Source: Hydrogenophaga sp. (lineage in GTDB: Bacteria > Pseudomonadota > Gammaproteobacteria > Burkholderiales > Burkholderiaceae_C). From it: DNA of 64,000 nt. The notes under the pieces are model-generated. The model was given only the letters and a program-made list of their open reading frames with translations. It had not been told where the DNA came from and searched no databases. Shown here in pieces: positions 21,981 to 33,976 of the stretch; position 1 is the first letter of the stretch; each line of letters begins with the position of its first letter. The position numbers and the translations under genes are program-made. The DNA lies in contig JACVCO010000008.1 of NCBI GenBank assembly GCA_016741995.1, positions 62,001 through 126,000 on the forward strand, read 5' to 3'.

Positions 21981-23342
21981 TCAGCCGCGCAGCGCCACCA
22001 GCAGTTCATCGAACACCGAGAGCAGCGTCGCCACGTCGGCCGCTGTGGTTTCGGGGCTCACCAGCATCATGCTGTGGAAGGGCGTGAGCAGCACGCCGCG
22101 GTTGAGCATGAACAGGTGCGTGAGCGCCTCGAGTTCGCCTTGCGCGAGGTCGCGCACGTCCTGCGCGTGGCGCGGGGTGTGCGGCATGAACTGCAGCTCC
22201 AGGCGCGCACCCAGGCGTGTCACCGTCCAGGGCCGCTGCGCTGCGCCGATGCGGCGCACCAGGCCGTCTTCGAGCGTGGTGGCGAGCGCGAGCATGTGGC
22301 GGTAGTTGGGTTCGGTGTGCAGGTGCGTGAGCGCGGCGTCGAGCGCGGCCAGGGCCAGCGGGTTGCCCGCGAGCGTGGTGCCGATGCCGCTGTGGCCTTC
22401 GGGCGCTGCGTCCTTGGCCACGGCCATGCGCGCGCCGAGGGCGTGCGTGAAGCCGTACACCGCGCAGGGCAGGCCACCGGCCACGGCCTTGCCCACCACC
22501 AGCACGTCGGGCGCAAGGCCGTGCGCGCGCGCGTAGCCGCCGAGCGCGGTGGAGATGGTGTGGGTCTCGTCCATCACGAACAGCGCGCCGTGGCGGTGGC
22601 ACAGGTCGCGCGCGGCGGGCCAGAAGCCGTCGGCCGGGGGCACCAGGCCGAAGTTCGTGAGCGCGGGCTCGGCCAGCAGGCAGGCCACGTCGCCGTGCGA
22701 GAGCGCGGCCTCGAGTGCGGCGATGTCGTTGAACGGCACCACGCGCGTGTGGGCGTGGTGGTCGTGCACCTGGCCCAGCACCGAGGGGCGCCGCACCGTG
22801 GACCCTGTGGCTGGATCGAGATCCACCAGCGTGTCGTCGACCGCACCGTGGTAGCAGCCGTCGAACACCAGCAGCGTGGGCCGCTGCGTGATGGCGCGTG
22901 CCCAGCGCAGCACGAAGCGGTTGGCGTCGCTGGCGGTGAGGGCCATCTGCCACAGCGGCAGGCCGAACACGCGTTCGAGCGCGTCGCCCACCGCCACCGC
23001 GCGCGTGGACGGCAGCATGCAGGTGAGGCCCTGCACGGCCTGCTCGGCAATGGCCCGCGCCAACGGCGCCGGGCTGTGGCCGAACATGGCGCCGGTGTCG
23101 CCGAGGCAGAAGTCGGCGTGGCGCAGGCCGTCGGCGCAGATGAGCGTGGCGCCCTGCGCGTGCCGCACCGCCAGCGTGGCGGGTGTGGGCCAGTCGCGCA
23201 TCCAGTGCAGTGGCACGCCGAACAGGTAGTGCGCGCGCGCCGCGTCGGCCTGTGCCACGGAACGCGGGTGGGTGGCGATGAAGCGCTCGCGCTCGGCCTG
23301 TTGCAAGGCCGCGATGCGTGGCGGGGCGATGGCGTCGTTCAT
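21981..23342 (-). CDS. class III PLP aminotransferase, glutamate-1-semialdehyde aminomutase-like
   Basis: 453-residue fold-type I PLP enzyme. HemL-like features: TLICADGLRHADFCLGDTGAMFGHSP split over residues ~65-90, GCYHGAVDDTL where the PLP phosphate-binding segment lies, the cofactor Asp in FVMDETHT, and the Schiff-base Lys in VGKAVAGGLP near residue 285. It is not HemL itself: sequence and length differ and no heme genes are near. It may be a transaminase or aminomutase of unknown substrate. A -10-like TAGAGT ends 6 nt before the ATG, suggesting a leaderless mRNA. Divergent from the MFS transporter at 23448, which could move its substrate or product. Confidence 0.82.
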   Translation of the reverse strand: MNDAIAPPRIAALQQAERERFIATHPRSVAQADAARAHYLFGVPLHWMRDWPTPATLAVRHAQGATLICADGLRHADFCLGDTGAMFGHSPAPLARAIAEQAVQGLTCMLPSTRAVAVGDALERVFGLPLWQMALTASDANRFVLRWARAITQRPTLLVFDGCYHGAVDDTLVDLDPATGSTVRRPSVLGQVHDHHAHTRVVPFNDIAALEAALSHGDVACLLAEPALTNFGLVPPADGFWPAARDLCHRHGALFVMDETHTISTALGGYARAHGLAPDVLVVGKAVAGGLPCAVYGFTHALGARMAVAKDAAPEGHSGIGTTLAGNPLALAALDAALTHLHTEPNYRHMLALATTLEDGLVRRIGAAQRPWTVTRLGARLELQFMPHTPRHAQDVRDLAQGELEALTHLFMLNRGVLLTPFHSMMLVSPETTAADVATLLSVFDELLVALRG

Positions 23343-24708: not shown

Positions 24709-26028
24709 ATGCGCCGACCGCTTCGCCTCGCCCTCTGGTTCGCCGTGCCCGCGCTGTTGCTGGCCGCGGCCGGCGTGGCCCTGAACCGCTGGATCGCGAG
24801 CGACGATTTCCGCGCGCGGCTGGGCGCGGTGGCGAGCGAGGCGCTGGGTGCGCCGGTGCGCGCGCAAGGCCTGTCGCTCGCGCTGTGGCCCCTGCCGGCG
24901 GTGGCGGTCGACGGGCTGAGCATCCAGGCGCACACGCCGCTGTCGCTGCAGCGCGTGGAGTTGCGCCCGCGCTGGTTGCCGCTGCTCTCCGGGCAGCTGC
25001 GCGTGCAGACGCTGGTGGTGCGCCAGGCCGTTTTGCCCGAGGCCACGATCGCGCTGCTGGGCGCCCGCGCGAGCGAGCGCAACGGCGGCGCGGCCGGTGG
25101 GCCCGGCGACAGCGAGGACGCCCTCGATTTCTCGCTGCTGCCGCGCGAGCTGGTGCTCGACGAAGTGACCTGGCTCGCGGCCGACGGCGCGCGCACCACG
25201 GTGAATGCGCAACTGCGCCTGGACGCCGATGGCTGGCCGCGCGAGGCCGAGATGAGCATCGTGGTCGGGGCCCTGCGTGGCACCACCCTGCGCCTGGCGC
25301 GCGAGGGCGATGCCACGGCCTGGAACCTGGACGCGAGGCTCGGCGGCGGCCGCATCCGCGGGCCGCTGAACGTGGGCCTGCCCGCGCCCGACGCGAAGCA
25401 ACGCCGTGTGGCATTGACGGGCCACCTGCAGACGGAGGGCGTGGAGGTGTCGGCGCTCACCGCGCCGCGCCGCACGCTCACCGGGCGGCTGCAGGCGCGC
25501 ACCGAGATCGCGGCGCAGTTCCCCGAGCGCGTGAGCGCCGACGCTCTGGTGGCCGCGCTGCGCACCGAGACCACCTTCACGGTGAACGACGCGGTCATCA
25601 ACGGCCTGGACCTGGCCCGCGCGGTGAGCACCGTGGGCCTGTCGCACGGCGGCAGCACGTCGCTGGACACGCTGGCCGGCCAGGTGAGCACACGCGGCAA
25701 GGCGATCGCGCTGACGAACCTGGTGGCCAGCTCGGGCGTGCTGGCCGCCACCGGCGACGTGAACATCTCGCCCGCGCGCGCCCTCTCGGGCCGCGTGCGC
25801 GTGGACATGACGCGCGGCGCCGCGGGCCAGGTGGTGGGTGTGCCGCTGGCCGTGGGCGGCACGCTCGATGACCCCCAGGTCACGCTCACGCGCGCGGCGC
25901 TGCTGGGTGCGGCCATCGGCACCGCGGTGATGCCGGGCGTGGGTACGGGCGCGGGCGCCAACCTGGGTGACCGCCTGGGCGAAGGCCTCAAGGGCCTGTT
26001 CGGTGGCGGGCGCGAAGGGAAGCGCTGA
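24709..26028 (+). CDS. AsmA-like envelope protein
   Basis: 439 residues with an N-terminal membrane anchor (LALWFAVPALLLAAAGVAL, residues ~6-24) and a large periplasmic part. The region after the anchor (LGAPVRAQGLSLALWPLPAVAVDGLSI split over ~47-75) and the later TLTGRLQARTEIAAQFPER and VTLTRAALLGAAIGTAVMPG blocks fit the AsmA family, proteins that affect outer-membrane or phospholipid homeostasis. Shorter than E. coli AsmA (617). CACAAT (24697-24702) ends 6 nt before the ATG. Converges with the ATP-grasp gene with a 9-nt gap. Confidence 0.82.
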   Translation: MRRPLRLALWFAVPALLLAAAGVALNRWIASDDFRARLGAVASEALGAPVRAQGLSLALWPLPAVAVDGLSIQAHTPLSLQRVELRPRWLPLLSGQLRVQTLVVRQAVLPEATIALLGARASERNGGAAGGPGDSEDALDFSLLPRELVLDEVTWLAADGARTTVNAQLRLDADGWPREAEMSIVVGALRGTTLRLAREGDATAWNLDARLGGGRIRGPLNVGLPAPDAKQRRVALTGHLQTEGVEVSALTAPRRTLTGRLQARTEIAAQFPERVSADALVAALRTETTFTVNDAVINGLDLARAVSTVGLSHGGSTSLDTLAGQVSTRGKAIALTNLVASSGVLAATGDVNISPARALSGRVRVDMTRGAAGQVVGVPLAVGGTLDDPQVTLTRAALLGAAIGTAVMPGVGTGAGANLGDRLGEGLKGLFGGGREGKR

Positions 26029-26037
26029 CCGGATCGA

Positions 26038-27369
26038 TCAGGCCGGTGCGGCCGCGCGGGCGTCGGTGTCGATGTACTTGGCGGTTTCCACGCCCAGCAG
26101 GGTGTCGAGGTCCTGCAGGAAACGGTGGCCTCGGGCCTTGCTGGTCTCGGGGTCGGGCCCGGGAACGATGGCGTGGCCGAGCACCGACACGTTGCCATCG
26201 AAGCGGCGCAGCGGCATGCCCGCGGCCAGCTTCAGGGTACAGAAGCCGATGCCGTGGCGTTGCAGCAGGGCGTCCAGACGGCCCTGGGTGAACGTGGCCG
26301 ACACGGTGCCGCCGGTTCGTGCACCAATGAGCACCACGGTGGCCGCGCGCCGGATGCTGGCGGGATCGGGTGAGATGGGTTCGCCCAGGTGGAGCCGCAG
26401 CAGCCATTCGAAGGCGTCCAGACCGGACACCGTGGTGTAGGCCTGCGGGCCGACGCCGCCCATCATGCGGCCATTGATCTCCACCAGACAGGGCCCCCCG
26501 TCGCCGAAGAGCAGTTCCACGTGGTACAGCCCGAAGCGCAGGCCGATGGCACCGAACACGGCGCGCACGTGCTCTTCGAGCGCGGCCTGCTCGGGCGCCG
26601 CGAGCCCCGAAGGCATGGCGTAACCCATCTCCAGCAGATCGTTGTGCGAGGCGCGGTAACGCGTGGTGCCGGCGTAGAAGCGGACGTCGCCGTTCACCAC
26701 CACGACCTCACAGGAGTGCAGGCTGCCGGTGATGTAGGTCTCGATGATGTAGTCGTGGCTGACGATGCGGTTGATCATCGGGTCGCTCTGCCCGCGCGCG
26801 GCCTTCAGCGCGGCGACGAAGTGGTCGAATTCTTCGTCGGTGTGGCACACGGCAGAAAACTGTTTGCCGAAACCGCGCGTGGGCTTGACCACCAGCGGGA
26901 CCGGAATGCGCCGGGTGTGGCCCGCGATGAGCCTGTCTTCGCTCACGACCTCGAAGTCGGGTGAGCGCAGACCGGCGGCGCGCACGGCGGCGCGGCAGCG
27001 GTCTTTGAAGACGGCCCGCTCCAGGGCGGCCCGCCCCGGGCCTGGAACACCCAGGGCTTCGGCGGCGCGCGCCACCGGCAGGATGGCCGCTTCGGAGGTG
27101 GTGATCAGCGCGTTCACCGGGCCGTGGCGCCGGGCGAGATCGCGCAGGCCGCGATCAACGGCGTCGTTCTGCAGGCTGGGAATGCGGAGGTGTTCGTGCG
27201 CGTGCTCCAGGTGGGGCAGAACGCGGGATGCGTCCGAGGTGGAGATGGCGAGGAACGAGTTGTCCTGGGGTTCGATGAAGCTGACGCGGCAGCCCATCTC
27301 GCGCGCGGTGCGCAGGGCCAGCAAGCCGGCCAGGGTGGAATCGACGAAGACGACGTGGGGGGTGCTCAT
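26038..27369 (-). CDS. ATP-grasp ligase (L-amino-acid ligase/carboxylate-amine ligase type)
   Basis: 443 residues. An N-terminal Rossmann-like domain (VVFVDSTLAGLLALRTARE, residues ~4-24) precedes the ATP-grasp fold, with VPLVVKPTRGFGK near residue 160 and the Mg-binding CLVEINGRMMGG near 300, followed by a C-terminal lobe. Such enzymes make an acyl-phosphate and join it to an amine, as in BacD/RizA-type dipeptide synthesis. Its ATG overlaps the stop of the MFS gene (ATGA at 27366-27369). Last gene of the LuxR-transaminase-dioxygenase-MFS-ligase cluster, so it probably makes the final amide bond. Substrates unknown. Confidence 0.85.
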   Translation of the reverse strand: MSTPHVVFVDSTLAGLLALRTAREMGCRVSFIEPQDNSFLAISTSDASRVLPHLEHAHEHLRIPSLQNDAVDRGLRDLARRHGPVNALITTSEAAILPVARAAEALGVPGPGRAALERAVFKDRCRAAVRAAGLRSPDFEVVSEDRLIAGHTRRIPVPLVVKPTRGFGKQFSAVCHTDEEFDHFVAALKAARGQSDPMINRIVSHDYIIETYITGSLHSCEVVVVNGDVRFYAGTTRYRASHNDLLEMGYAMPSGLAAPEQAALEEHVRAVFGAIGLRFGLYHVELLFGDGGPCLVEINGRMMGGVGPQAYTTVSGLDAFEWLLRLHLGEPISPDPASIRRAATVVLIGARTGGTVSATFTQGRLDALLQRHGIGFCTLKLAAGMPLRRFDGNVSVLGHAIVPGPDPETSKARGHRFLQDLDTLLGVETAKYIDTDARAAAPA

Positions 27370-28571
27370 GGGATGTGGGTGCTTGCCGTGGCGGCGCCGC
27401 GCTGCCGGCGCAGGGCGGTGCACAGAAAGAAAAACAGCACGAACGCCAGTGCCGTGGCCGTGAGGCCGTGGGTCTCGATGAGCACGGCGCCGATGGCGAT
27501 GGCCAGCATCATTCCGGCGTACACCAGCGCGTATTGCAGCGTGGCCACGAGTGGCATGTCGTTTGCCGGGGTGGCGAGCATGATGTCGCCCTGCAGCCGG
27601 AAGAAGGCCAGCTCGAAGCAGAAGAAATAGATGAAGTAGCTGGTGAAGCTCGCGGGCACGCCGGGCAGCACGCAGGCGCCCACCATGGCGATCGCGCTGA
27701 GCGGATAGATCCAGCCGAGACGGAAGGCCCAGTGCCGACGGCTCAAGGCGTAGTACGTGAGTGCGCCGGCCACGGCCGACAGACTGGCGACGATTTGCAG
27801 CAGCCCGACCTGCGATTGACCCAGACCGAGGTGGTGCGCGGGCAGCGCCACGCGTGAGAGGTTGTAGAAGCCCTGGAAGACGGCACCCAGCAACACGAAG
27901 GCGAACAGGCTTTCGCGCAAGGCCGGCGTGTCCCGCAGCAGGCCCACGCAGCGCCGCAGGCCCGCCTGGTCGGCGGGGGCCGCGGCCCGTTGCTCGGCCA
28001 GGCGGGGCAACAACACCGCGCAAGCGGCCGCGAGGCCCATCAAGCTGATGGTGGCGATGGCCGCGCTGGCGTGCGTCAACCGCCCCGGAAAGAAAGCCAG
28101 GATGGCGCCGGCCATGGCACCGGCGATGAACTGTGCGGTCAAGGTGAGCGGAACGGTGAAGCGCACCTCGCTGGCCGAGAAGAAGCGCTTGATGGCCACG
28201 ATGCGCGCGACACGTTGCACCGCATCCAGTGTGCCGACAAGCGCTGCGCCGACCAGCACGGCGGTGGCCGTGAGGTCGACGAGGAGGAACAGCACGGTGC
28301 AGACCAGGGCGCCGAGCACGTTGCTCACCCACAGCAGGCGCCGCGGGTCGACCCGGCTCGCCACCTGGTGCAGCTGGAACGCGAACACCACCGGCATGAC
28401 CATGGGCGCCAGGAGCACGAACTCGGAGACCAGCAGGCTGTCCAGCACGCGGTAGGCGTGGTGGGCCAGATAGAGGTAGACCAGCACGCTGGCCGAGATG
28501 GAGGCCAGGTTGATGGCCCACAGCAGCCCGGTGAGGCGACGCCGGCCGTGCAGATGCGGGTTCGGTTCCAT
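27366..28571 (-). CDS. MFS-type multidrug/metabolite transporter
   Basis: 401 residues with 10-12 hydrophobic segments (for example LLWAINLASISASVLVYLYL near the start and FAFVLLGAVFQGFYNLS in the middle). No specific substrate motif is recognised. It lies between the dioxygenase (26-nt gap) and the ATP-grasp ligase (4-nt overlap). In small natural-product clusters this position usually belongs to the product exporter. The ribosome site before ATG 28571 is weak, suggesting coupling to the upstream gene. Export of the cluster product is inference. Confidence 0.8.
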   Translation of the reverse strand: MEPNPHLHGRRRLTGLLWAINLASISASVLVYLYLAHHAYRVLDSLLVSEFVLLAPMVMPVVFAFQLHQVASRVDPRRLLWVSNVLGALVCTVLFLLVDLTATAVLVGAALVGTLDAVQRVARIVAIKRFFSASEVRFTVPLTLTAQFIAGAMAGAILAFFPGRLTHASAAIATISLMGLAAACAVLLPRLAEQRAAAPADQAGLRRCVGLLRDTPALRESLFAFVLLGAVFQGFYNLSRVALPAHHLGLGQSQVGLLQIVASLSAVAGALTYYALSRRHWAFRLGWIYPLSAIAMVGACVLPGVPASFTSYFIYFFCFELAFFRLQGDIMLATPANDMPLVATLQYALVYAGMMLAIAIGAVLIETHGLTATALAFVLFFFLCTALRRQRGAATASTHIP

Positions 28572-28597
28572 GTGCGCGAGTGGCGGGCCGGTCGGGT

Positions 28598-29302
28598 TCA
28601 AGCCGTCGCCATGTGCTCGTTGCCGATGGCGCCTTGCCGCTTCTCGAACTCCTCGCCGTAGCGACGACGCGCCCACGCGTTGAAAGACACGATCATGATG
28701 TCGCGGTGCCCGGGCGCGTCGCCCGCCGGAAGGATGTCCGTGGCGTGGTGCCACATCCTGTCGTCGGCCACCACGATGGCATCGAGCGGTTGCAGCACGT
28801 CTTCGAAGAAGCACGGCCCGCCACCCGTGGGCATGAGCTGGCTGACGCCGCCCGTGATGTTGTGGCGCGCGAAGATGGCGTTCATGACGAAGTCGTGTCC
28901 GTCGCGGTGGGGGCCTTCCGGTACCGCGATGCCTTTGATGTCGTTGGAGGTGATCACCCGCACCTGGTGGACGTTGATCTGGTAGGCCTGCGCGGTGTCG
29001 AGCCGGGCCGCCTGCGCACCCGCCGCGACTTGCGGCGTCGGGTCGAACCGGATGGGTTGGAACTCGCGCTGCACACCGCCGACGACCCCGTTGTAGTTTC
29101 GTGACTGGATGAATGGCCGGTGGGGAAGCAGCTCGGTGCGCCATTCGCCGGTGCCGAACCACAGCTTGAATTGCGAGAAGCGGCGGTAGCGTTGCTTGCC
29201 GCCGGTGTATGGGTCGAAAGCGAGGGTGTCGAACTCGCGCATGGCTTGCGCAGACAGGGCGGGAACCGTGAAGCGGGCGTAGTGGCGGGTATGAAAGTCC
29301 AT
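28598..29302 (-). CDS. 2-oxoglutarate/Fe(II) dioxygenase, L-isoleucine-dioxygenase (2OG-Fe_Oxy_2) family
   Basis: 234 residues. The Fe(II) ligands are visible as HRD in PEGPHRDGHDF (HxD) with the distal His in MWHHATDI; the 2-oxoglutarate-binding Arg is likely in GHRDIMIVSFNAW. This family includes enzymes that hydroxylate free amino acids such as isoleucine, using O2 and 2-oxoglutarate. GGAG lies 8 nt before ATG 29302. It follows the transaminase by 28 nt. The two genes together suggest that a diamino or other amino acid is made and then hydroxylated. The exact substrate cannot be read. Confidence 0.85.
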   Translation of the reverse strand: MDFHTRHYARFTVPALSAQAMREFDTLAFDPYTGGKQRYRRFSQFKLWFGTGEWRTELLPHRPFIQSRNYNGVVGGVQREFQPIRFDPTPQVAAGAQAARLDTAQAYQINVHQVRVITSNDIKGIAVPEGPHRDGHDFVMNAIFARHNITGGVSQLMPTGGGPCFFEDVLQPLDAIVVADDRMWHHATDILPAGDAPGHRDIMIVSFNAWARRRYGEEFEKRQGAIGNEHMATA

Positions 29303-29330
29303 GAGAAATCTCCGTGGGTGTTGAAACCGT

Positions 29331-30686
29331 TCAGGCCGCGACGGATGCGTCGCTCGGCGCGCGATCGAGACATGCGCCCATGGCCTTGCCGATGCGTTCC
29401 ACCGCCTCGTCGATCTCGCGCTCGGTGATGGTCAGGGCGGGCAGGAAGCGCATGACCGCGCCGTGGCGGCCACCGGTCTCGACGATGACGCCGTGTTCGA
29501 AGCACGCGCGCTTGATGCGCCTGGCGAGCGCGCCATCGGCCGGGCCGCCGTCGCCTTGGGGCGACCGGATGTCCATGCCCAGCATGAGGCCGCGGCCCCG
29601 GATCTCGCCGATGCAGGGCAGTGAGCCGGAGAGCGCCCGCAGCCGCTGCTCCAGGTAGGCGCCGCAGGCTGTTGCGCGGGCCGGCAGGCCGTGCATGCGC
29701 AGGTAGCGCATGGTGGCGGCGCCGGCGGCGAGGGCGATCTGGTTGCCGCGGAAGGTTCCGGCGTGGGCGCCCGGCAGCCAGCGGTCGTAGCGTTGGTGGT
29801 AGGCCAGCGCCGCCAGAGGAAAGCCGCCGCCGAGCGCCTTGGACATGACGATGGCGTCGGGCACGATGTCTGCGACTTCGTGCGCGAACATGTGGCCGGT
29901 GCGACCGAACCCGGTCTGCACTTCGTCCATCACGAGCGGGATGTCGTGCCGCTGCGTGACGTCGCGCAGGCCCCGAAGCCAGTTCGCGGAAGCCGGTATG
30001 CATCCCCCTTCGCCTTGCACGGGCTCCAGCAGGATCAAGGCCGGTTTGGTGATGCCACTTTCCGGGTCGCCGAGCGCGTTGTCGAGGTATCTCAGCGCGA
30101 GGGCTTCGCCTTCCGCGCCGCCGATGCCGAACATGCAGTGGCTGTCACTGGGGTAGGGAAAGAAGTGCACGTTGCCCTGGACGCCACCCACCGGGGTCTT
30201 GGGCCCGAGGTTGCCCATGAGCGCCAGCGACCCCGACGTCATGCCGTGGTAGGCGCCATGGAATGCGATGACCGATTGGCGCCCGGTGACGGTCTTGAAC
30301 AGCTTGAGTGCGGCCTCGACGGCGTCTGATCCGGTGGGGCCGCAGAACTGGATGCGGCATTCCTGCGAGAACCGCGTGGGCAGGGTCTGCCAGAGTTGCT
30401 CGATGAACTCCAGCTTGGCCGGTGTGGCCATGTCCAGACCCTGCAACACCTGGCCCGAACCGAGGAAGGCGTTCACGTGGTCCATCACGTAAGGGTGGTT
30501 GTGCCCCAGGGGAAGGGCACCGGCGCAGGCGAGGAGGTCGATGTATTCGCGGCCCTGCGCATCCCAGATCTTCGACAGCGATCCGCGGGTGAACATGGCA
30601 TCGAAGGTCCGGGCATAGGTGCGGGCGTTCGATTCGCGTGCGGTGATGAAACCGACGGCATCGGTGGGCGTGAGCGTGGTCTTCAT
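29331..30686 (-). CDS. class III transaminase, diaminobutyrate:2-oxoglutarate type
   Basis: 451-residue PLP enzyme. Motifs: GPTGSDAVEAALKLFKTVTG near residue 115, HGAYHGMTSGSLALMG, the cofactor Asp in MDEVQTGFGRTG, the Schiff-base Lys in VMSKALGGGFPLAAL near residue 281, and WLPGAHAGTFRGNQIALAAG, which matches the EctB/RhbA/PvdH group that makes L-2,4-diaminobutyrate from aspartate semialdehyde. No ectA or ectC is present, so it is not an ectoine locus. First enzyme after luxR (65-nt gap) and followed by the dioxygenase. A 13-bp palindrome lies 32-44 nt upstream of the ATG, which has no clear Shine-Dalgarno. Confidence 0.85.
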   Translation of the reverse strand: MKTTLTPTDAVGFITARESNARTYARTFDAMFTRGSLSKIWDAQGREYIDLLACAGALPLGHNHPYVMDHVNAFLGSGQVLQGLDMATPAKLEFIEQLWQTLPTRFSQECRIQFCGPTGSDAVEAALKLFKTVTGRQSVIAFHGAYHGMTSGSLALMGNLGPKTPVGGVQGNVHFFPYPSDSHCMFGIGGAEGEALALRYLDNALGDPESGITKPALILLEPVQGEGGCIPASANWLRGLRDVTQRHDIPLVMDEVQTGFGRTGHMFAHEVADIVPDAIVMSKALGGGFPLAALAYHQRYDRWLPGAHAGTFRGNQIALAAGAATMRYLRMHGLPARATACGAYLEQRLRALSGSLPCIGEIRGRGLMLGMDIRSPQGDGGPADGALARRIKRACFEHGVIVETGGRHGAVMRFLPALTITEREIDEAVERIGKAMGACLDRAPSDASVAA

Positions 30687-30717
30687 GGTGGGTGTTGGGG
30701 CGGCTTGCTGGGAAAGG

Positions 30718-30730
30718 GCTGGATTCCAGC
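30718..30730. promoter_or_regulatory. 13-bp palindrome upstream of the transaminase gene
   Basis: GCTGGA-T-TCCAGC lies in the 65-nt luxR/transaminase gap. It could be an operator or a short hairpin in the message. It does not resemble the dyad upstream of luxR at 31504-31524. Confidence 0.35.
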
Positions 30731-30751
30731 ACCGCGTGTTGGCGCTGCCTA

Positions 30752-31453
30752 CTACCCGTTCGGGCGGGGCCGCCACTGCAGCAAACCCAGCAGGGCCGCC
30801 TTGACGGCCGCGGCCGTTTTGTTGCTCACCCCCAGCTTGACGGTGACGTTCTTGAGGTGAAACTTGACCGTGTTCTCGGAGACCCGAAGGATCTGTGCCA
30901 CCTCCGGCGTGGTCTTGCCTGCCGCGCTCCATCGCAGCACCTCACGCTCCCGCTGGGTGAGGTGCGTGTCGGACAAACGAAGGGCGGCGGCGTGGATCGC
31001 GTGCGCGATCCGGCTCAGAAAGGGCTCAATGCTGCTCAGTTCGCCGGCCGTCAATTCCGAAGAGCGGCGAAAGAGCATGAACATGCCCCGGGAGCCCAGG
31101 CCATGTGGAGCGGGCACCCCCCGGGCCCATCCCATGGCGGAGCCATGCCCGTGGGTGGGCGTCCACGGCGGGTGTTCGGACCAGATCACGGGTTCTTCGG
31201 AGCACCAGCAGTGGGCGAAGACGGGATCCGTGCTGACGTGGTGCTCGGCCACCTGGTGGCGCTGCCAGTCGTGCGGCAGGCTGGTGAGGGTGGCGGCCGT
31301 GGGATGACAGCCAGCCAGCCAGATGCTCTGGATGTACGAGAAATGTTCGAAGCCCGTGGTGCGCGCAGCGGCTTGTGCGATGTCGCAGATCTCGTGCTGA
31401 TCGGTGGCGTGGTGCGCCTGTTGCAACAGCCGGTCTTTCCGTTCGGATTCCAA
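30752..31453 (-). CDS. LuxR-family regulator with autoinducer-binding domain (LuxR solo)
   Basis: 233 residues. The N-terminal acyl-homoserine-lactone-binding domain covers residues ~10-155, and the C-terminal GerE-type helix-turn-helix ~168-228 (LTQREREVLRWSAAGKTTPE, NTVKFHLKNV). Of the pocket residues known from LasR/TraR, Trp57 (HDW), Asp70-Pro71 (STDPV) and Trp85 are kept, but the Tyr61 position is Gln (WQRHQ). The start is TTG 31453, supported by AGGAG 9 nt upstream; no ATG gives a complete domain. No luxI synthase is in the window. It heads the transaminase-dioxygenase-MFS-ATP-grasp cluster on the same strand and probably controls it. Confidence 0.88.
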   Translation of the reverse strand: MESERKDRLLQQAHHATDQHEICDIAQAAARTTGFEHFSYIQSIWLAGCHPTAATLTSLPHDWQRHQVAEHHVSTDPVFAHCWCSEEPVIWSEHPPWTPTHGHGSAMGWARGVPAPHGLGSRGMFMLFRRSSELTAGELSSIEPFLSRIAHAIHAAALRLSDTHLTQREREVLRWSAAGKTTPEVAQILRVSENTVKFHLKNVTVKLGVSNKTAAAVKAALLGLLQWRPRPNG

Positions 31454-31503
31454 CGCCTCTCTCCTGCCCGCAGGGCTCGGCGCAGTCTATGCAGGCATGG
31501 CCG

Positions 31504-31524
31504 CCATACCTGTGGAGGGTATGG
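31504..31524. promoter_or_regulatory. lux-box-like inverted repeat upstream of luxR
   Basis: CCATACC-N7-GGTATGG, a perfect 7-bp inverted repeat, 51-71 nt before the luxR start. A -10-like TAGACT (minus strand, 31489-31484) would put the dyad centre near -37 to -42, where LuxR-type activators bind. The sequence is not the Vibrio lux-box consensus, so binding is inferred from position and symmetry. Confidence 0.5.
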
Positions 31525-31544: not shown

Positions 31545-33296
31545 TCAGGCGACGAGGGCCCCGAGCGCCCGGCGCAGCGCCGCGGGGTCGACCGGTTTGT
31601 AGAGCACGGGCACGCCCGCGTCGCGCACGCGTTGCAGGCGCTCGGGCGCGGTTTCGCCGGTGATCAGCAGCAGGGGCAGGCCGGGCGCGTGGCGTTCGCG
31701 CAGGCGCTGCGCGGCGAGCAGGCCGTCGGCGCCATCGGCGAGGCGGAAGTCGCAGATGAGTGCGTCGAAGGGTTCGCCGGTGCGCCCGGCTTGTGCCAGC
31801 GCGTCGTCGGCGTGGGTTTCGCCGTCCACCGCGGTGATCGAAACCCCCCAGCCGCCGAGCAACGCCACCGTGGCGTGGGCGATGTCGGCCTCGTCGTCGA
31901 TGAGCAGCACGCGCCGTGGCAGGTGTGGAGTTTCGGCGGGCTCGGGCGGTGGCGGGGTGGCCGCGCTGGGGGGCGGCGCCTCGGCGGCGGGCAGCACGAG
32001 CCGGAAGCGGCTGCCGCGCCCGACGCGCGAGCGCAGCGAGATGGGGTGCCCCAGCAGCGCCGCGAGCCGACGCACGATGGCCAGGCCCATGCCCAGGCCG
32101 CGCGATCGGTCGCGGCCCGGGTTGTCCACCTGGTAGAACTCGTCGAACACGCGCTCGGCGTGCTCGGGCGCGATGCCCACGCCGGTGTCGATCACCTCGA
32201 CCCACACCTGCGTGCCGCGCGCCCGCGCGACGACGAGCACGCCACCCTGCGGCGTGTACTTGATGGCGTTCTCGACCAGGTTGGCCAGCAGGCGCTGCAG
32301 CAACTGCGGATCGCTGTGCACCCACTGGGGCGTGGCGCGGATGCGCAGCTGCAGGCCGGCCTCCTCGGCGCGTGTGCCGAACAGGGGCAGCAATGCGGTG
32401 AACACGTCGGCCAGGGCGATGGTGTGTCGCTCGGGGGCGATGACGCCCGCGTCCAGGCGCGAGACGTCGAGCATGGTGTCGAGCGAGGTGCCGAGCGCGC
32501 GCACCGCGCCCATCAGGCGCTGCGCGTGCACCAGGGCCGGGCGGCTCTGCAGTTCGCGTTCGATCACCGCGCCGAACAGGGCGATGGCGTGCAGCGGCTG
32601 GCGCAGGTCGTGGCTGGCGGCGGCGAAGAAGCGGGTTTTCTCCTCGCTGGCGCGTCGCGTGATCGCCATCTGCTCGGCCAGTTGTTCGGCCAGCACCTCT
32701 TTCTCGAAGCGCATCTGCAGCGATTCGGCCAGCAGCAGGTGCTGGCGTCGCGCGAAGAGCAGCATGGCGCCGGTGTAGATGACGACGCAGGCGGCCAGGA
32801 AGAGGTGGGTGAGGTCGCGCAGCCACAGCAGCGCGCTGGCCAGGCCCGCCATCATGGGCAGCACGAAGGCCAGCACCGAGGCCCAGCGCGGCGCCACGGA
32901 GGGCACGCCGCCACTGACCAGGCCGAGCATGACGAGCATGAGCAGCGTGGTCATGGGGGTGTCGTTGGCGGGCATGAAGAGCCAGGGCGCCAGACCCCAG
33001 GTGGCGCTGTAGTACAGCAGCTCGCGCCATTGGCGCCGGGCCCAGAAGGCGCTGCGCGTGGCGGCCAGCGGGTCCTTGAAGTAGGCGTGGACGAGCGGGT
33101 AGCGCAGCACCTGCACGGTGTGCAGCGCCAGCCACACGAACACCATTGGGTCTTTCAGCTGCCACCAGAACAGCGCGCACAGGCCCCAGGCCAGCACGGC
33201 GTCGGCGATGGTGGAGCTCAGCGAGGTGGCGTAGAGGGCGGCGACCTGCGCGCGCAGCACGCGCTGCTGCGTCGATTCGGCGCCCGGCCCGCTCAT
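31545..33296 (-). CDS. hybrid sensor histidine kinase/response regulator
   Basis: 583 residues. The N-terminal membrane part has about six hydrophobic segments (residues ~20-180). HisKA has the phosphorylated His229 in SHDLRQPLHA. The HATPase domain shows NLVENAIKYTP (N box), DTGVGIAP (G1), FDEFYQVDNPG and GLGMGLAIVRRLA. A Pro-rich linker (PPPSAATPPPPEP) leads to a C-terminal receiver domain of ~120 residues with LLIDDEAD and LICDFRL carrying the acceptor Asp. Its ATG overlaps the stop of the response regulator (ATGA at 33293-33296). No periplasmic sensor domain is obvious; the membrane segments may sense the signal. Confidence 0.92.
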   Translation of the reverse strand: MSGPGAESTQQRVLRAQVAALYATSLSSTIADAVLAWGLCALFWWQLKDPMVFVWLALHTVQVLRYPLVHAYFKDPLAATRSAFWARRQWRELLYYSATWGLAPWLFMPANDTPMTTLLMLVMLGLVSGGVPSVAPRWASVLAFVLPMMAGLASALLWLRDLTHLFLAACVVIYTGAMLLFARRQHLLLAESLQMRFEKEVLAEQLAEQMAITRRASEEKTRFFAAASHDLRQPLHAIALFGAVIERELQSRPALVHAQRLMGAVRALGTSLDTMLDVSRLDAGVIAPERHTIALADVFTALLPLFGTRAEEAGLQLRIRATPQWVHSDPQLLQRLLANLVENAIKYTPQGGVLVVARARGTQVWVEVIDTGVGIAPEHAERVFDEFYQVDNPGRDRSRGLGMGLAIVRRLAALLGHPISLRSRVGRGSRFRLVLPAAEAPPPSAATPPPPEPAETPHLPRRVLLIDDEADIAHATVALLGGWGVSITAVDGETHADDALAQAGRTGEPFDALICDFRLADGADGLLAAQRLRERHAPGLPLLLITGETAPERLQRVRDAGVPVLYKPVDPAALRRALGALVA

Positions 33297-33976
33297 CGCA
33301 GGCTGCTGATCAGTTGCGCGCGCGAACGCACGCCGAATAGCAGCAGCAGGGCCGAAACGTGGTTCTTGACGGTGCCTTCGCTGAGGTGGGCACGCGTGGC
33401 GATCTCGCGGTTGGACGCGCCGGCCAGCACCCATTCGAGCACCTGGGTCTGGCGCTCGGTGAGCGACAGGCGCTGGCCGTTGGCGCCGTGCCAGGTGGAC
33501 AGCGTGGTCTGGTCGGGGCCGAGCGGGGTGATGTCGAGGCGGTCCTGCGGGCCGAAGGTGCCGCGCGAGCGGATGAAGCCGATCACGTGCTGCAGGTCGC
33601 CCGCCTTGGGCAGGTAGGCCAGCGCGCCGCGCGCCACCACGTGGCGCACCAGGCCGGGGTCGTTCACGCCGGAGAGCACCACCACCGGCGCCCGGGGCCA
33701 GGCGCGCAGGAAGTCATCGAGACCGCTCATGCCGTGGGCGTCGGGCAGGTGCAGGTCGAGCAGCACCAGGCCGATGCGGTGGCGTTGCTCGCGGTAGAGC
33801 TCCAGCGCCTCGGCCAGCGTGCGGGCCTCGAACACCGGCACGTCCTGGCCGGTGTCGGCGGCGTGCGATTGCACCAGCGTGAGCAGGCCCAGGCGCACGA
33901 GGTCGTGGTCGTCAACGACGAGCAGGCCGGAGGCGGCGGTGGTGGTGGGTGCGGGGAGCTCGGCAACGGAATCCAT
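33293..33976 (-). CDS. NarL/FixJ-type response regulator
   Basis: 227 residues. The receiver domain (~17-140) has the acidic pair DDH at 22-24, the phospho-acceptor Asp74 in LLDLHLPDAHG and Lys in YLPKAGD. The LuxR-type helix-turn-helix is at the C-terminus (LTERQTQVLEWVLAGASNRE, EGTVKNHVSALL). It is cotranscribed with the hybrid kinase and is probably its partner. TAACAT on the minus strand (33989-33984) ends 7 nt before the ATG, so the message may be leaderless. A dyad TGAC-CAAA-GTCA at 34014-34025 lies upstream and could be its own binding site. Confidence 0.9.
   Translation of the reverse strand: MDSVAELPAPTTTAASGLLVVDDHDLVRLGLLTLVQSHAADTGQDVPVFEARTLAEALELYREQRHRIGLVLLDLHLPDAHGMSGLDDFLRAWPRAPVVVLSGVNDPGLVRHVVARGALAYLPKAGDLQHVIGFIRSRGTFGPQDRLDITPLGPDQTTLSTWHGANGQRLSLTERQTQVLEWVLAGASNREIATRAHLSEGTVKNHVSALLLLFGVRSRAQLISSLR

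What the first reader, a model, noticed from the sequence alone, without database searches (positions are those of the whole stretch)
26038..31524. LuxR-solo-led five-gene cluster for a hydroxylated amino acid or dipeptide: candidate undescribed natural-product system
Seen: on one strand, with gaps of 65, 28, 26 and -4 nt, are an orphan LuxR receptor, a diaminobutyrate-type class III transaminase, an amino-acid 2OG/Fe dioxygenase, an MFS carrier and an ATP-grasp ligase. Known: these families respectively make 2,4-diaminobutyrate, hydroxylate free amino acids, export small molecules and form amide bonds without NRPS. Inference: acyl-homoserine-lactone (or plant-signal) control of a small modified diamino acid or dipeptide that is exported. 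I know of no described pathway with this gene set.
Basis: partly seen in the sequence, partly recalled or inferred. Interest (0 to 1): 0.82.

Follow-up and report, generated by a model that had tools for sequence, protein, structure and literature searches.

The report
Conserved five-gene oxygenase-ligase operon
A rare five-gene operon, also found in a Hydrogenophaga and a Variovorax genome, probably makes and exports a tiny peptide-like compound; its key oxygen-using enzyme is a cousin of enzymes that build nitrocyclopropane amino acids but lacks their usual partner, so its chemistry is probably different and can be tested.

Summary
In detail: LuxR (start corrected to 31453), a diaminobutyrate-type transaminase, a PF10014 Fe/2OG oxygenase, an MFS protein and an ATP-grasp ligase lie on one strand with the stated gaps. 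The set recurs in Hydrogenophaga sp. CS4-C022 in the same order, and in Variovorax sp. WDL1 with LuxR moved to the other end and strand; dN/dS is below 1 for all five. It is rare: the ligase is in 2 of 67 genus genomes, own included, and 1 of 399 family genomes, its own. The interpretation changes. The oxygenase's nearest solved relatives are HrmJ and BelL, cyclopropanases of a nitro-amino acid, but it lies outside their clade: an HDO partner lies near 48 of 87 family oxygenases and near 0 of the 25 at least 45% identical to this one. The Hydrogenophaga CS4-C022 genome has the cluster and no HDO-family match. The ligase folds like L-amino-acid ligases. Acyl-homoserine-lactone control is unsupported. 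Best reading: an undescribed NRPS-free operon for an exported short peptide with an oxidised amino acid; product unknown.

The parts
30752..31453 (-). LuxR-type regulator (autoinducer-binding + GerE HTH), TTG start; no luxI partner found
   Evidence: PF03472 58.5 bits, PF00196 69.7 bits; relatives beside the operon in L031 (46%) and L033 (37%); PF00765 not found in G000 and G329, found in control G165
29331..30686 (-). Class III aminotransferase of the diaminobutyrate--2-oxoglutarate transaminase subfamily
   Evidence: TIGR00709 475.1 bits, cut-off 401.6; below the PRK06938, PRK06931 and EctB cut-offs; 73% L031, 71% L033; 63% Mycetohabitans, beside a SidA/IucD/PvdA N-hydroxylase
28598..29302 (-). 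Fe(II)/2-oxoglutarate oxygenase of the BelL/HrmJ family (PF10014); H132, D134, H185 and R200 intact
   Evidence: PF10014 155.2 bits; model pLDDT 92.6; HrmJ 9dq0 TM 0.90, rmsd 1.4; BelL 8jms TM 0.79; own clade outside the HDO-linked clade
27366..28571 (-). MFS-type transporter, probably an exporter
   Evidence: PF07690 33.1 bits against cut-off 33.4; 66% L031, 62% L033 in the same place
26038..27369 (-). ATP-grasp carboxylate-amine ligase resembling L-amino-acid ligases
   Evidence: PF13535/PF18130; sequence and fold nearest to 3vot BL00235, with BacD and RizA also near the top; 71% L031, 60% L033
31504..31524 (.). 7-7-7 inverted repeat upstream of luxR, possible operator; not statistically significant
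   Evidence: an arm this long in 8.6% of 500 shuffles of 91 nt, 19.6% of 500 shuffles of 147 nt
24709..26028 (+). AsmA-like gene, left border of the variable site (not part of the operon)
   Evidence: AsmA next to the agmatinase-like gene with no cluster in L135, L137, L138
31545..33976 (-). Histidine kinase/response regulator pair on the other side; a separate module
   Evidence: Pfam; present without the cluster in L133 and L136, not found at this site in L031 and L032
34150..35076 (+). Agmatinase/arginase-family gene, right border of the variable site
   Evidence: PF00491

Best explanation
The five genes form one biosynthetic operon for a small, exported, NRPS-independent peptide-like metabolite. 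Proposed order: (1) the transaminase makes L-2,4-diaminobutyrate from aspartate semialdehyde and glutamate, or a close omega-amino acid (inferred from subfamily). (2) The Fe/2OG oxygenase abstracts a hydrogen from a free amino acid and either hydroxylates it or remodels it further (family and metal residues shown; substrate and outcome inferred). (3) The ATP-grasp enzyme activates a carboxylate with ATP and joins the modified amino acid to a second amino acid or acid (fold shown, reaction inferred). (4) The MFS protein exports the product (direction inferred). (5) The LuxR regulator controls the operon in response to an unknown ligand; in the window and L031 its ligand pocket has departed from the acyl-homoserine-lactone pattern. 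The nitro-forming HDO step of the BelL and HrmJ pathways has no gene here, so the oxygenase probably acts on a different substrate.
For: Conserved set: L031 LuxR/TA/OXY/MFS/ATPG at 46/73/83/66/71% in the same order; L033 TA/OXY/MFS/ATPG at 71/77/62/60% in the same order, with LuxR (37%) beside the far end on the other strand. dN/dS below 1 for all pairs within the five genes. Oxygenase fold nearest to HrmJ/BelL, ligase fold nearest to L-amino-acid ligases. An ATP-grasp protein lies within 8 kb in 16 of 25 loci whose oxygenase is at least 45% identical, against 3 of 48 HDO-linked loci and 0 of the other 14; an MFS match in 11 of 25 against 0 of 48. Plasmid relatives of the TA sit beside a SidA/IucD/PvdA-type N-hydroxylase in Mycetohabitans and one gene away from one in Robbsia, as expected if this branch supplies diaminobutyrate to secondary metabolism.
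Against: No product, expression or activity data. The TA fails the single-function (equivalog) cut-offs listed. In H. intermedia S1 the oxygenase survives alone and intact, dN/dS 0.22 against L031, so it may have a role without the other four, or be a recent remnant. In 16 of the 25 related loci the PLP partner is a LysA-type decarboxylase; the TA itself is found only in the window, L031 and L033, so the TA product need not be the oxygenase substrate. The ATP-grasp proteins of the HDO-less actinobacterial loci are only 20-26% identical to the window's, so they are fellow family members, not close orthologues. After the amino-acid ligases, the ligase fold search lists purine-type and many biotin-carboxylase structures with nearby E-values.
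Confidence: 0.62

Rival explanations
1. The oxygenase is a plain hydroxylase of diaminobutyrate (or Orn, Lys or a branched amino acid) and the product is a hydroxy-amino-acid dipeptide. (This is one form of the best explanation.)
For: IDO, described as an isoleucine hydroxylase, also matches by fold (6lnh, TM 0.63-0.69, 15-17% identity); a carboxylate analogue of the nitro substrate was only hydroxylated, according to PMC10764440 passages.
Against: The nearest characterised relatives are cyclopropanases rather than hydroxylases. No substrate evidence.
Confidence: 0.45
2. The operon makes nitro- or aminocyclopropyl-alanine like the bel/hrm cassettes, borrowing an HDO encoded elsewhere in the genome.
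For: Family relation to BelL/HrmJ. PF14518 proteins exist elsewhere: two in G000, one each in the genomes of L032 and of the Variovorax cluster L033.
Against: The PF14518 stretches of G000, L032 and L033 genomes gave no tblastn match to the two cassette HDOs tested. HDO-linked oxygenases are one clade that excludes this one, and positions fixed in 40 of 40 HDO-linked rows (Y64, Y81, I141, V187) are changed in the window clade.
Confidence: 0.06
3. The operon is catabolic or for uptake: it imports and degrades an external amino acid or peptide.
For: MFS direction is unknown; TAs also work catabolically; neighbouring variable genes in L031 (TctC-type receptor, TauE, amidohydrolase) look catabolic.
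Against: An ATP-grasp amide ligase and a BelL-family oxygenase are biosynthetic types (inference from families); those neighbours are not in the window cluster and are not part of the shared set.
Confidence: 0.15
4. Quorum sensing by acyl-homoserine lactones from neighbours switches the operon on (eavesdropping LuxR solo).
For: Autoinducer-binding domain; the Variovorax LuxR keeps the Trp/Tyr/Asp-Pro/Trp pattern seen in the Thiomonas LuxR that sits beside a luxI.
Against: The window LuxR has Gln where those two have Tyr, and L031 lacks both the first Trp and the Tyr; both are shorter in a stretch of the ligand domain. Residue roles are recalled, not tested.
Confidence: 0.25

Closest known systems
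BelL/HrmJ nitrocyclopropanase cassettes (belactosin, hormaomycin)
   Same: Oxygenase of the same PF10014 family and fold (TM 0.90 to 9dq0); belactosin also joins an amino acid with an ATP-grasp enzyme, BelU (PMC11427300 passages).
   Different: No HDO (BelK/HrmI) or DapF-like partner; separate oxygenase clade; a class III transaminase and a LuxR instead. A second structure deposited as HrmJ (9dqp) is much more distant (TM 0.64, 25%), so the name alone decides nothing.
Pbo cluster of Pseudomonas syringae pv. phaseolicola, pboGHI (PMC8473136, table 1 read)
   Same: Same neighbouring trio by annotation: ATP-grasp like the B. licheniformis ligase, '2OG-Fe dioxygenase' modelled on IDO (Pfam accession not printed), MFS.
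   Different: Sits in a 16-gene NRPS/PKS cluster with a lysine-2,3-aminomutase-like radical SAM protein; no transaminase or LuxR listed in that table. Sequences were not compared.
Streptomyces/Actinomadura-type loci with oxygenase, LysA-type decarboxylase and ATP-grasp (L024, L025, L028, L034-L038 and others)
   Same: Oxygenase 50-59% identical, ATP-grasp within 8 kb, no HDO found.
   Different: LysA-type decarboxylase in place of the transaminase; extra methyltransferase, FemAB-like or c22 (sulfotransferase-like by eye) genes. No described product known to me.
Dat transaminase + N-hydroxylase loci (Mycetohabitans, Robbsia)
   Same: Transaminase 49-63% identical.
   Different: No match there to the other four window proteins at E 1e-5.
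L-amino-acid ligases BL00235, BacD, RizA
   Same: Among the best solved matches by sequence and fold (ranks 1-5 and 7).
   Different: Only 16-20% identity in the fold alignments; substrates unknown here.

Membership tests
BelL/HrmJ nitrocyclopropanases | PF10014 jelly roll with HxD...H and Arg | tested here: met
   H132, D134, H185, R200 invariant in 37 of 37 aligned sequences; fold TM 0.90 to 9dq0; residue roles recalled
BelL/HrmJ nitrocyclopropanases | Partner HDO that makes 6-nitronorleucine | tested here: not met
   0 of 25 loci in the 45%-or-more group have a cassette-type HDO match within 8 kb (some of these loci are cut short by contig ends); no PF14518 match in the genome of L031
BelL/HrmJ nitrocyclopropanases | DapF-like gene nearby (belM/hrmT) | tested here: not met
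   DapF match within 8 kb in 46 of 48 HDO-linked loci and 0 of 25 in the 45%-or-more group
BelL/HrmJ nitrocyclopropanases | Falls inside the HDO-linked clade | tested here: not met
   40 HDO-linked rows lie on one side of a branch, 100/99, without the window row; window, L031, L032, L033 form one group 100/100 (74 rows, midpoint root)
BelL/HrmJ nitrocyclopropanases | Turns L-6-nitronorleucine into nitrocyclopropylalanine | not testable with these tools
   needs an enzyme assay
Diaminobutyrate--2-oxoglutarate transaminase (TIGR00709) | Score above the curated subfamily cut-off | tested here: met
   475.1 vs 401.6 bits
Diaminobutyrate--2-oxoglutarate transaminase (narrower models) | Score above PRK06938, PRK06931 or EctB cut-offs | tested here: not met
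   575.5 vs 671; 495.2 vs 753; 374.2 vs 552.2
ATP-grasp L-amino-acid ligase | ATP-grasp fold with its conserved Lys and Glu residues | tested here: met
   K122, K162, E285, E297 and R301 invariant in 17 of 17 rows; fold matches 3vot, 3vmm, 4wd3; residue roles recalled
ATP-grasp L-amino-acid ligase | Dipeptide formation from free amino acids | not testable with these tools
   needs an enzyme assay
LuxR solo | AHL-type LuxR without a luxI | tested here: met
   PF03472 + PF00196; PF00765 not found in G000 (82% complete) or G329 (97%), found in control G165
AHL-responsive LuxR | Conserved ligand-pocket residues (Trp57, Tyr61, Asp70, Pro71, Trp85 of TraR; recalled) | tested here: not met
   Tyr61 equivalent is not Tyr in the window or in L031; the other four are kept in the window (alignment of 4 proteins)
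Conserved biosynthetic operon | Genes kept together and under selection across genera | tested here: met
   three genomes (window, Hydrogenophaga CS4-C022, Variovorax WDL1)

The most novel reading that the evidence does not exclude
The window oxygenase does ring- or bond-forming radical chemistry (as BelL/HrmJ do) on a substrate without a nitro group, for example making a cyclopropane, aziridine or azetidine amino acid from diaminobutyrate or a relative. The ligase then turns this into a dipeptide antimetabolite, all under a LuxR that senses something other than a standard acyl-homoserine lactone.
Probability: 0.13. Interest if true: 0.82.

Novelty: new variant of a known kind. Interest (0 to 1): 0.52.

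Why it matters
BelL/HrmJ relatives are described as makers of nitrocyclopropanes fed by an HDO. This work separates a group of the same family in which that partner was found in 0 of 25 loci, which spans Pseudomonadota and Actinomycetota, and which often sits with an ATP-grasp ligase (16 of 25). The five-gene window version is small enough to express whole in E. coli, so its product, and the question of what these oxygenases do without a nitro substrate, are directly testable. If the product acts outside the cell, it would also be a regulator-linked compound in Hydrogenophaga and Variovorax.

Tried and rejected
Rejected: that the five genes are a chance neighbourhood. Rejected: that this is simply a bel/hrm nitrocyclopropane cassette. 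Considered and not supported: a lux-box operator. Perfect dyads with 5-7 nt arms exist in the eight intergenic stretches examined, but arms as long arose in 6-90% of 500 single-base shuffles. No sigma-70-like promoter was found; 6 terminator-like sites were found in the region against a shuffled mean of 2.8 (sd 1.7), five of them on the minus strand inside the MFS gene, and I draw nothing from them. Considered: that the histidine kinase/response regulator pair belongs to the system; it occurs at the same site without the cluster.

Led nowhere: paper searches by PDB code, by 'BsmA', by enzyme combination. The first PF00765 search was uninformative because no control rang, so it was repeated with G165 as positive control. 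My first ORF caller mis-called genes in high-GC loci and was replaced. One search covered a family unrelated to the question (PF03765) and served only to learn the genome handle and the window's place.

Dropped rows and limits: needs an exact short peptide pattern, so relatives without it are missed; it kept 80 of 127 relatives. One search used 87 loci: the window, 80, five plasmid loci, and L021, which is the same place as L052 (counted twice among the 48). For the tree, 8 of the 80 had no usable oxygenase call (L052, L053, L058, L060, L073, L093, L095, L102) and 5 calls that I judged truncated (L074, L081, L101, L106, L110) were left out, which with L021 gave 74 rows. Its deep forks are weak (63/39; the join of the window group with its actinobacterial neighbours 86/72), and L055-L057 sit on long branches. 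Only 6 of the 18 genus genomes with the AsmA anchor were fetched to look at the site.
Full report
What is there. On the minus strand: a LuxR-type regulator (31453-30752), a class III transaminase (30686-29331), a PF10014 Fe/2OG oxygenase (29302-28598), an MFS protein (28571-27366) and an ATP-grasp protein (27369-26038). The gaps are 65, 28, 26 and -4 nt. The LuxR frame is closed by a stop upstream, so its start is TTG 31453 rather than 31524. Two caveats: the MFS match is just under the Pfam cut-off (33.1 vs 33.4 bits), and the transaminase passes the diaminobutyrate transaminase subfamily cut-off but none of the narrower ones.

Is it a unit. A scan of the species-genome collection with an alignment of six oxygenases gave 127 relatives, of which the best 80 were kept. 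Three are close: Hydrogenophaga sp. CS4-C022 (L031, a MAG), Hydrogenophaga intermedia S1 (L032) and Variovorax sp. WDL1 (L033). L031 has all five genes in the same order. L033 has TA-OXY-MFS-ATPG in the same order, with the LuxR beside the far end on the opposite strand. The MFS/ATP-grasp overlap of 4 nt is the same in all three. That the LuxR moves but stays next to the operon speaks for a functional link. My own Nei-Gojobori dN/dS is 0.12-0.36 for the four non-regulatory genes and 0.48-0.66 for LuxR; dS is above 1 in many pairs with L033, so those values are rough. L032 keeps only the oxygenase, intact.

Rarity and site. The ATP-grasp gene was found at E 1e-20 in 2 of 67 genus genomes (the window's own and G329) and at E 1e-60 in 1 of 399 family genomes (its own). 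G329 is the L031 genome, since contig length and gene coordinates agree, so the two searches add no further cluster to L031 and L033. The cluster sits between an AsmA-like gene and an agmatinase-like gene. Of 18 genus genomes with the AsmA gene at E 1e-60 I fetched six. In G301, G114 and G347 the two genes are neighbours without the cluster. G307 and G341 have the kinase/regulator pair there (G307 with about 1.9 kb more that I did not study). G306, which is H. intermedia S1, has the oxygenase and three transport/hydrolase genes. L031 has the cluster plus those three. G+C is 66-69% in the window's cluster genes against 73-76% in two flanking genes. Synonymous divergence between the window and L031 is somewhat higher in the cluster (dS 0.68-0.95) than in those two genes (0.47-0.55). 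This fits an old gain at one site followed by losses, but does not prove it.

What the oxygenase is. Its model (pLDDT 92.6) matches HrmJ best (9dq0, TM 0.90, rmsd 1.4, 35% identity), then BelL (8jms, TM 0.79); sequence search gave the same two first. Another structure deposited as HrmJ (9dqp) is far more distant (TM 0.64, 25%). According to passages of the review PMC10764440, BelL and HrmJ turn L-6-nitronorleucine into nitrocyclopropylalanine after an HDO (BelK/HrmI) has made the nitro group from lysine, and both clusters hold a DapF-like gene. I tested whether the window enzyme is one of these. Of 87 loci, 48 have a cassette-type HDO match within 8 kb of the oxygenase, 46 of them also a DapF match. 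Of the 25 loci (window included) whose oxygenase is at least 45% identical to the window's, none has either; the remaining 14 have no HDO match. Some of the 25 are cut short by contig ends, so single absences are not secure. In a 74-row tree the 40 HDO-linked rows lie on one side of a branch (100/99), and the window, L031, L032 and L033 form another group (100/100) outside it. The L031 genome has the whole cluster and no PF14518 match. The window's genome has two PF14518 proteins elsewhere, and the genomes of L032 and L033 one each; those stretches gave no tblastn match to the two cassette HDOs tested. Positions fixed in 40 of 40 HDO-linked rows (Y64, Y81, I141, V187) are Phe, Phe, Asn and Ala in all four rows of the window group, while the metal and 2OG residues are intact. 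So it is of the BelL/HrmJ family but probably has a different substrate.

What the partners say. The ATP-grasp model (pLDDT 89.1) matches L-amino-acid ligases best (3vot and BacD fill ranks 1-5, RizA is 7th); a purine-type enzyme (rank 6) and many biotin carboxylases follow closely. An ATP-grasp match lies within 8 kb in 16 of the 25 HDO-less loci and in 3 of the 48 HDO-linked ones, an MFS match in 11 and 0. In 16 of the 25 the PLP partner is a LysA-type decarboxylase instead of the transaminase. So the oxygenase-ligase pairing is the wider theme, and the transaminase is special to this version. The transaminase's best plasmid relatives (63%, Mycetohabitans) sit beside a SidA/IucD/PvdA-type N-hydroxylase, and the 49% Robbsia one lies one gene away from one; of 321 records with a match I looked at three, one of them without annotation. 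This fits a supply of diaminobutyrate but does not prove it. The published pboGHI genes are the same trio by annotation (ATP-grasp, 2OG-Fe dioxygenase, MFS), inside an NRPS/PKS cluster (PMC8473136, table 1). In belactosin the ATP-grasp enzyme BelU adds L-alanine (PMC11427300 passages).

Regulation. No luxI match was found in G000 (82% complete) or G329 (97%), with G165 as positive control. The window LuxR keeps both Trp residues and the Asp-Pro of the ligand pocket but has Gln for the Tyr. L031 has lost the first Trp and the Tyr, while the Variovorax and Thiomonas proteins keep the pattern (residue roles and numbering recalled). Possible operators upstream were not significant. I therefore keep 'LuxR-linked' and drop 'acyl-homoserine-lactone controlled'.

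Mechanism and standing. Shown: gene set, conservation, selection, families, intact active-site residues, separation from the HDO-linked clade. Inferred: diaminobutyrate supply, hydroxylation or other oxidation, amide bond formation, export, and the regulator's ligand. In the held library (5.39 million open papers) the listings of searches showed no pathway with this gene set; I saw titles and abstract starts there, and subscription journals are largely not covered. Papers seen further: PMC8473136 (outline, abstract, tables), PMC10764440 and PMC11427300 (passages). I place it as a new variant of a known kind: an NRPS-free, ATP-grasp small-peptide pathway with a BelL/HrmJ-family oxygenase.

Noticed in passing
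L052 (Thiomonas bhubaneswarensis; read as L021 6196-16607): A BelK/BelL-type HDO-oxygenase pair with ThiF and class I aminotransferase (Pfam) and ArgC-like and DapF-like genes (by eye; DapF also by tblastn) lies next to a LuxR and a LuxI match: possibly a quorum-controlled nitrocyclopropane cassette. LuxR-like hits also lie in the loci L059, L074 and L093.
   Followed up: partly
L048, L051, L053, L058, L059, L060 (Halomonas, Glaciimonas, Billgrantia, Pantoea, Pseudomonas): HDO and a BelL-like oxygenase with a DapF-like match about 3.6-3.8 kb away; in L048, L051 and L059 the called genes share three more families, one of them annotated as a class I/II aminotransferase in L027. I recognised no known product.
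   Followed up: partly
L032 9986-10687 (Hydrogenophaga intermedia S1): The oxygenase survives alone and intact, with dN/dS 0.22 against L031 (two neighbouring genes 0.09 and 0.13), without the other four genes.
   Followed up: partly
L029 5679-11813 (Tistrella mobilis pTM3): An HDO match, an ATP-grasp protein 32% identical to the window's and two MFS-like genes lie together without an oxygenase match: similar parts recombined.
   Followed up: partly
L034-L038 and L055-L057: Oxygenase next to a LysA-type decarboxylase and a family (c22) that looks like a sulfotransferase by eye, with a glutamine-synthetase-like gene nearby in some; not confirmed by a domain search.
   Followed up: no
window 21981-23342 and 31545-33976: A second class III aminotransferase (PRK07046 subfamily, 670.7 bits) and a kinase/regulator pair flank the site; both occur without the cluster in related genomes.
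   Followed up: partly
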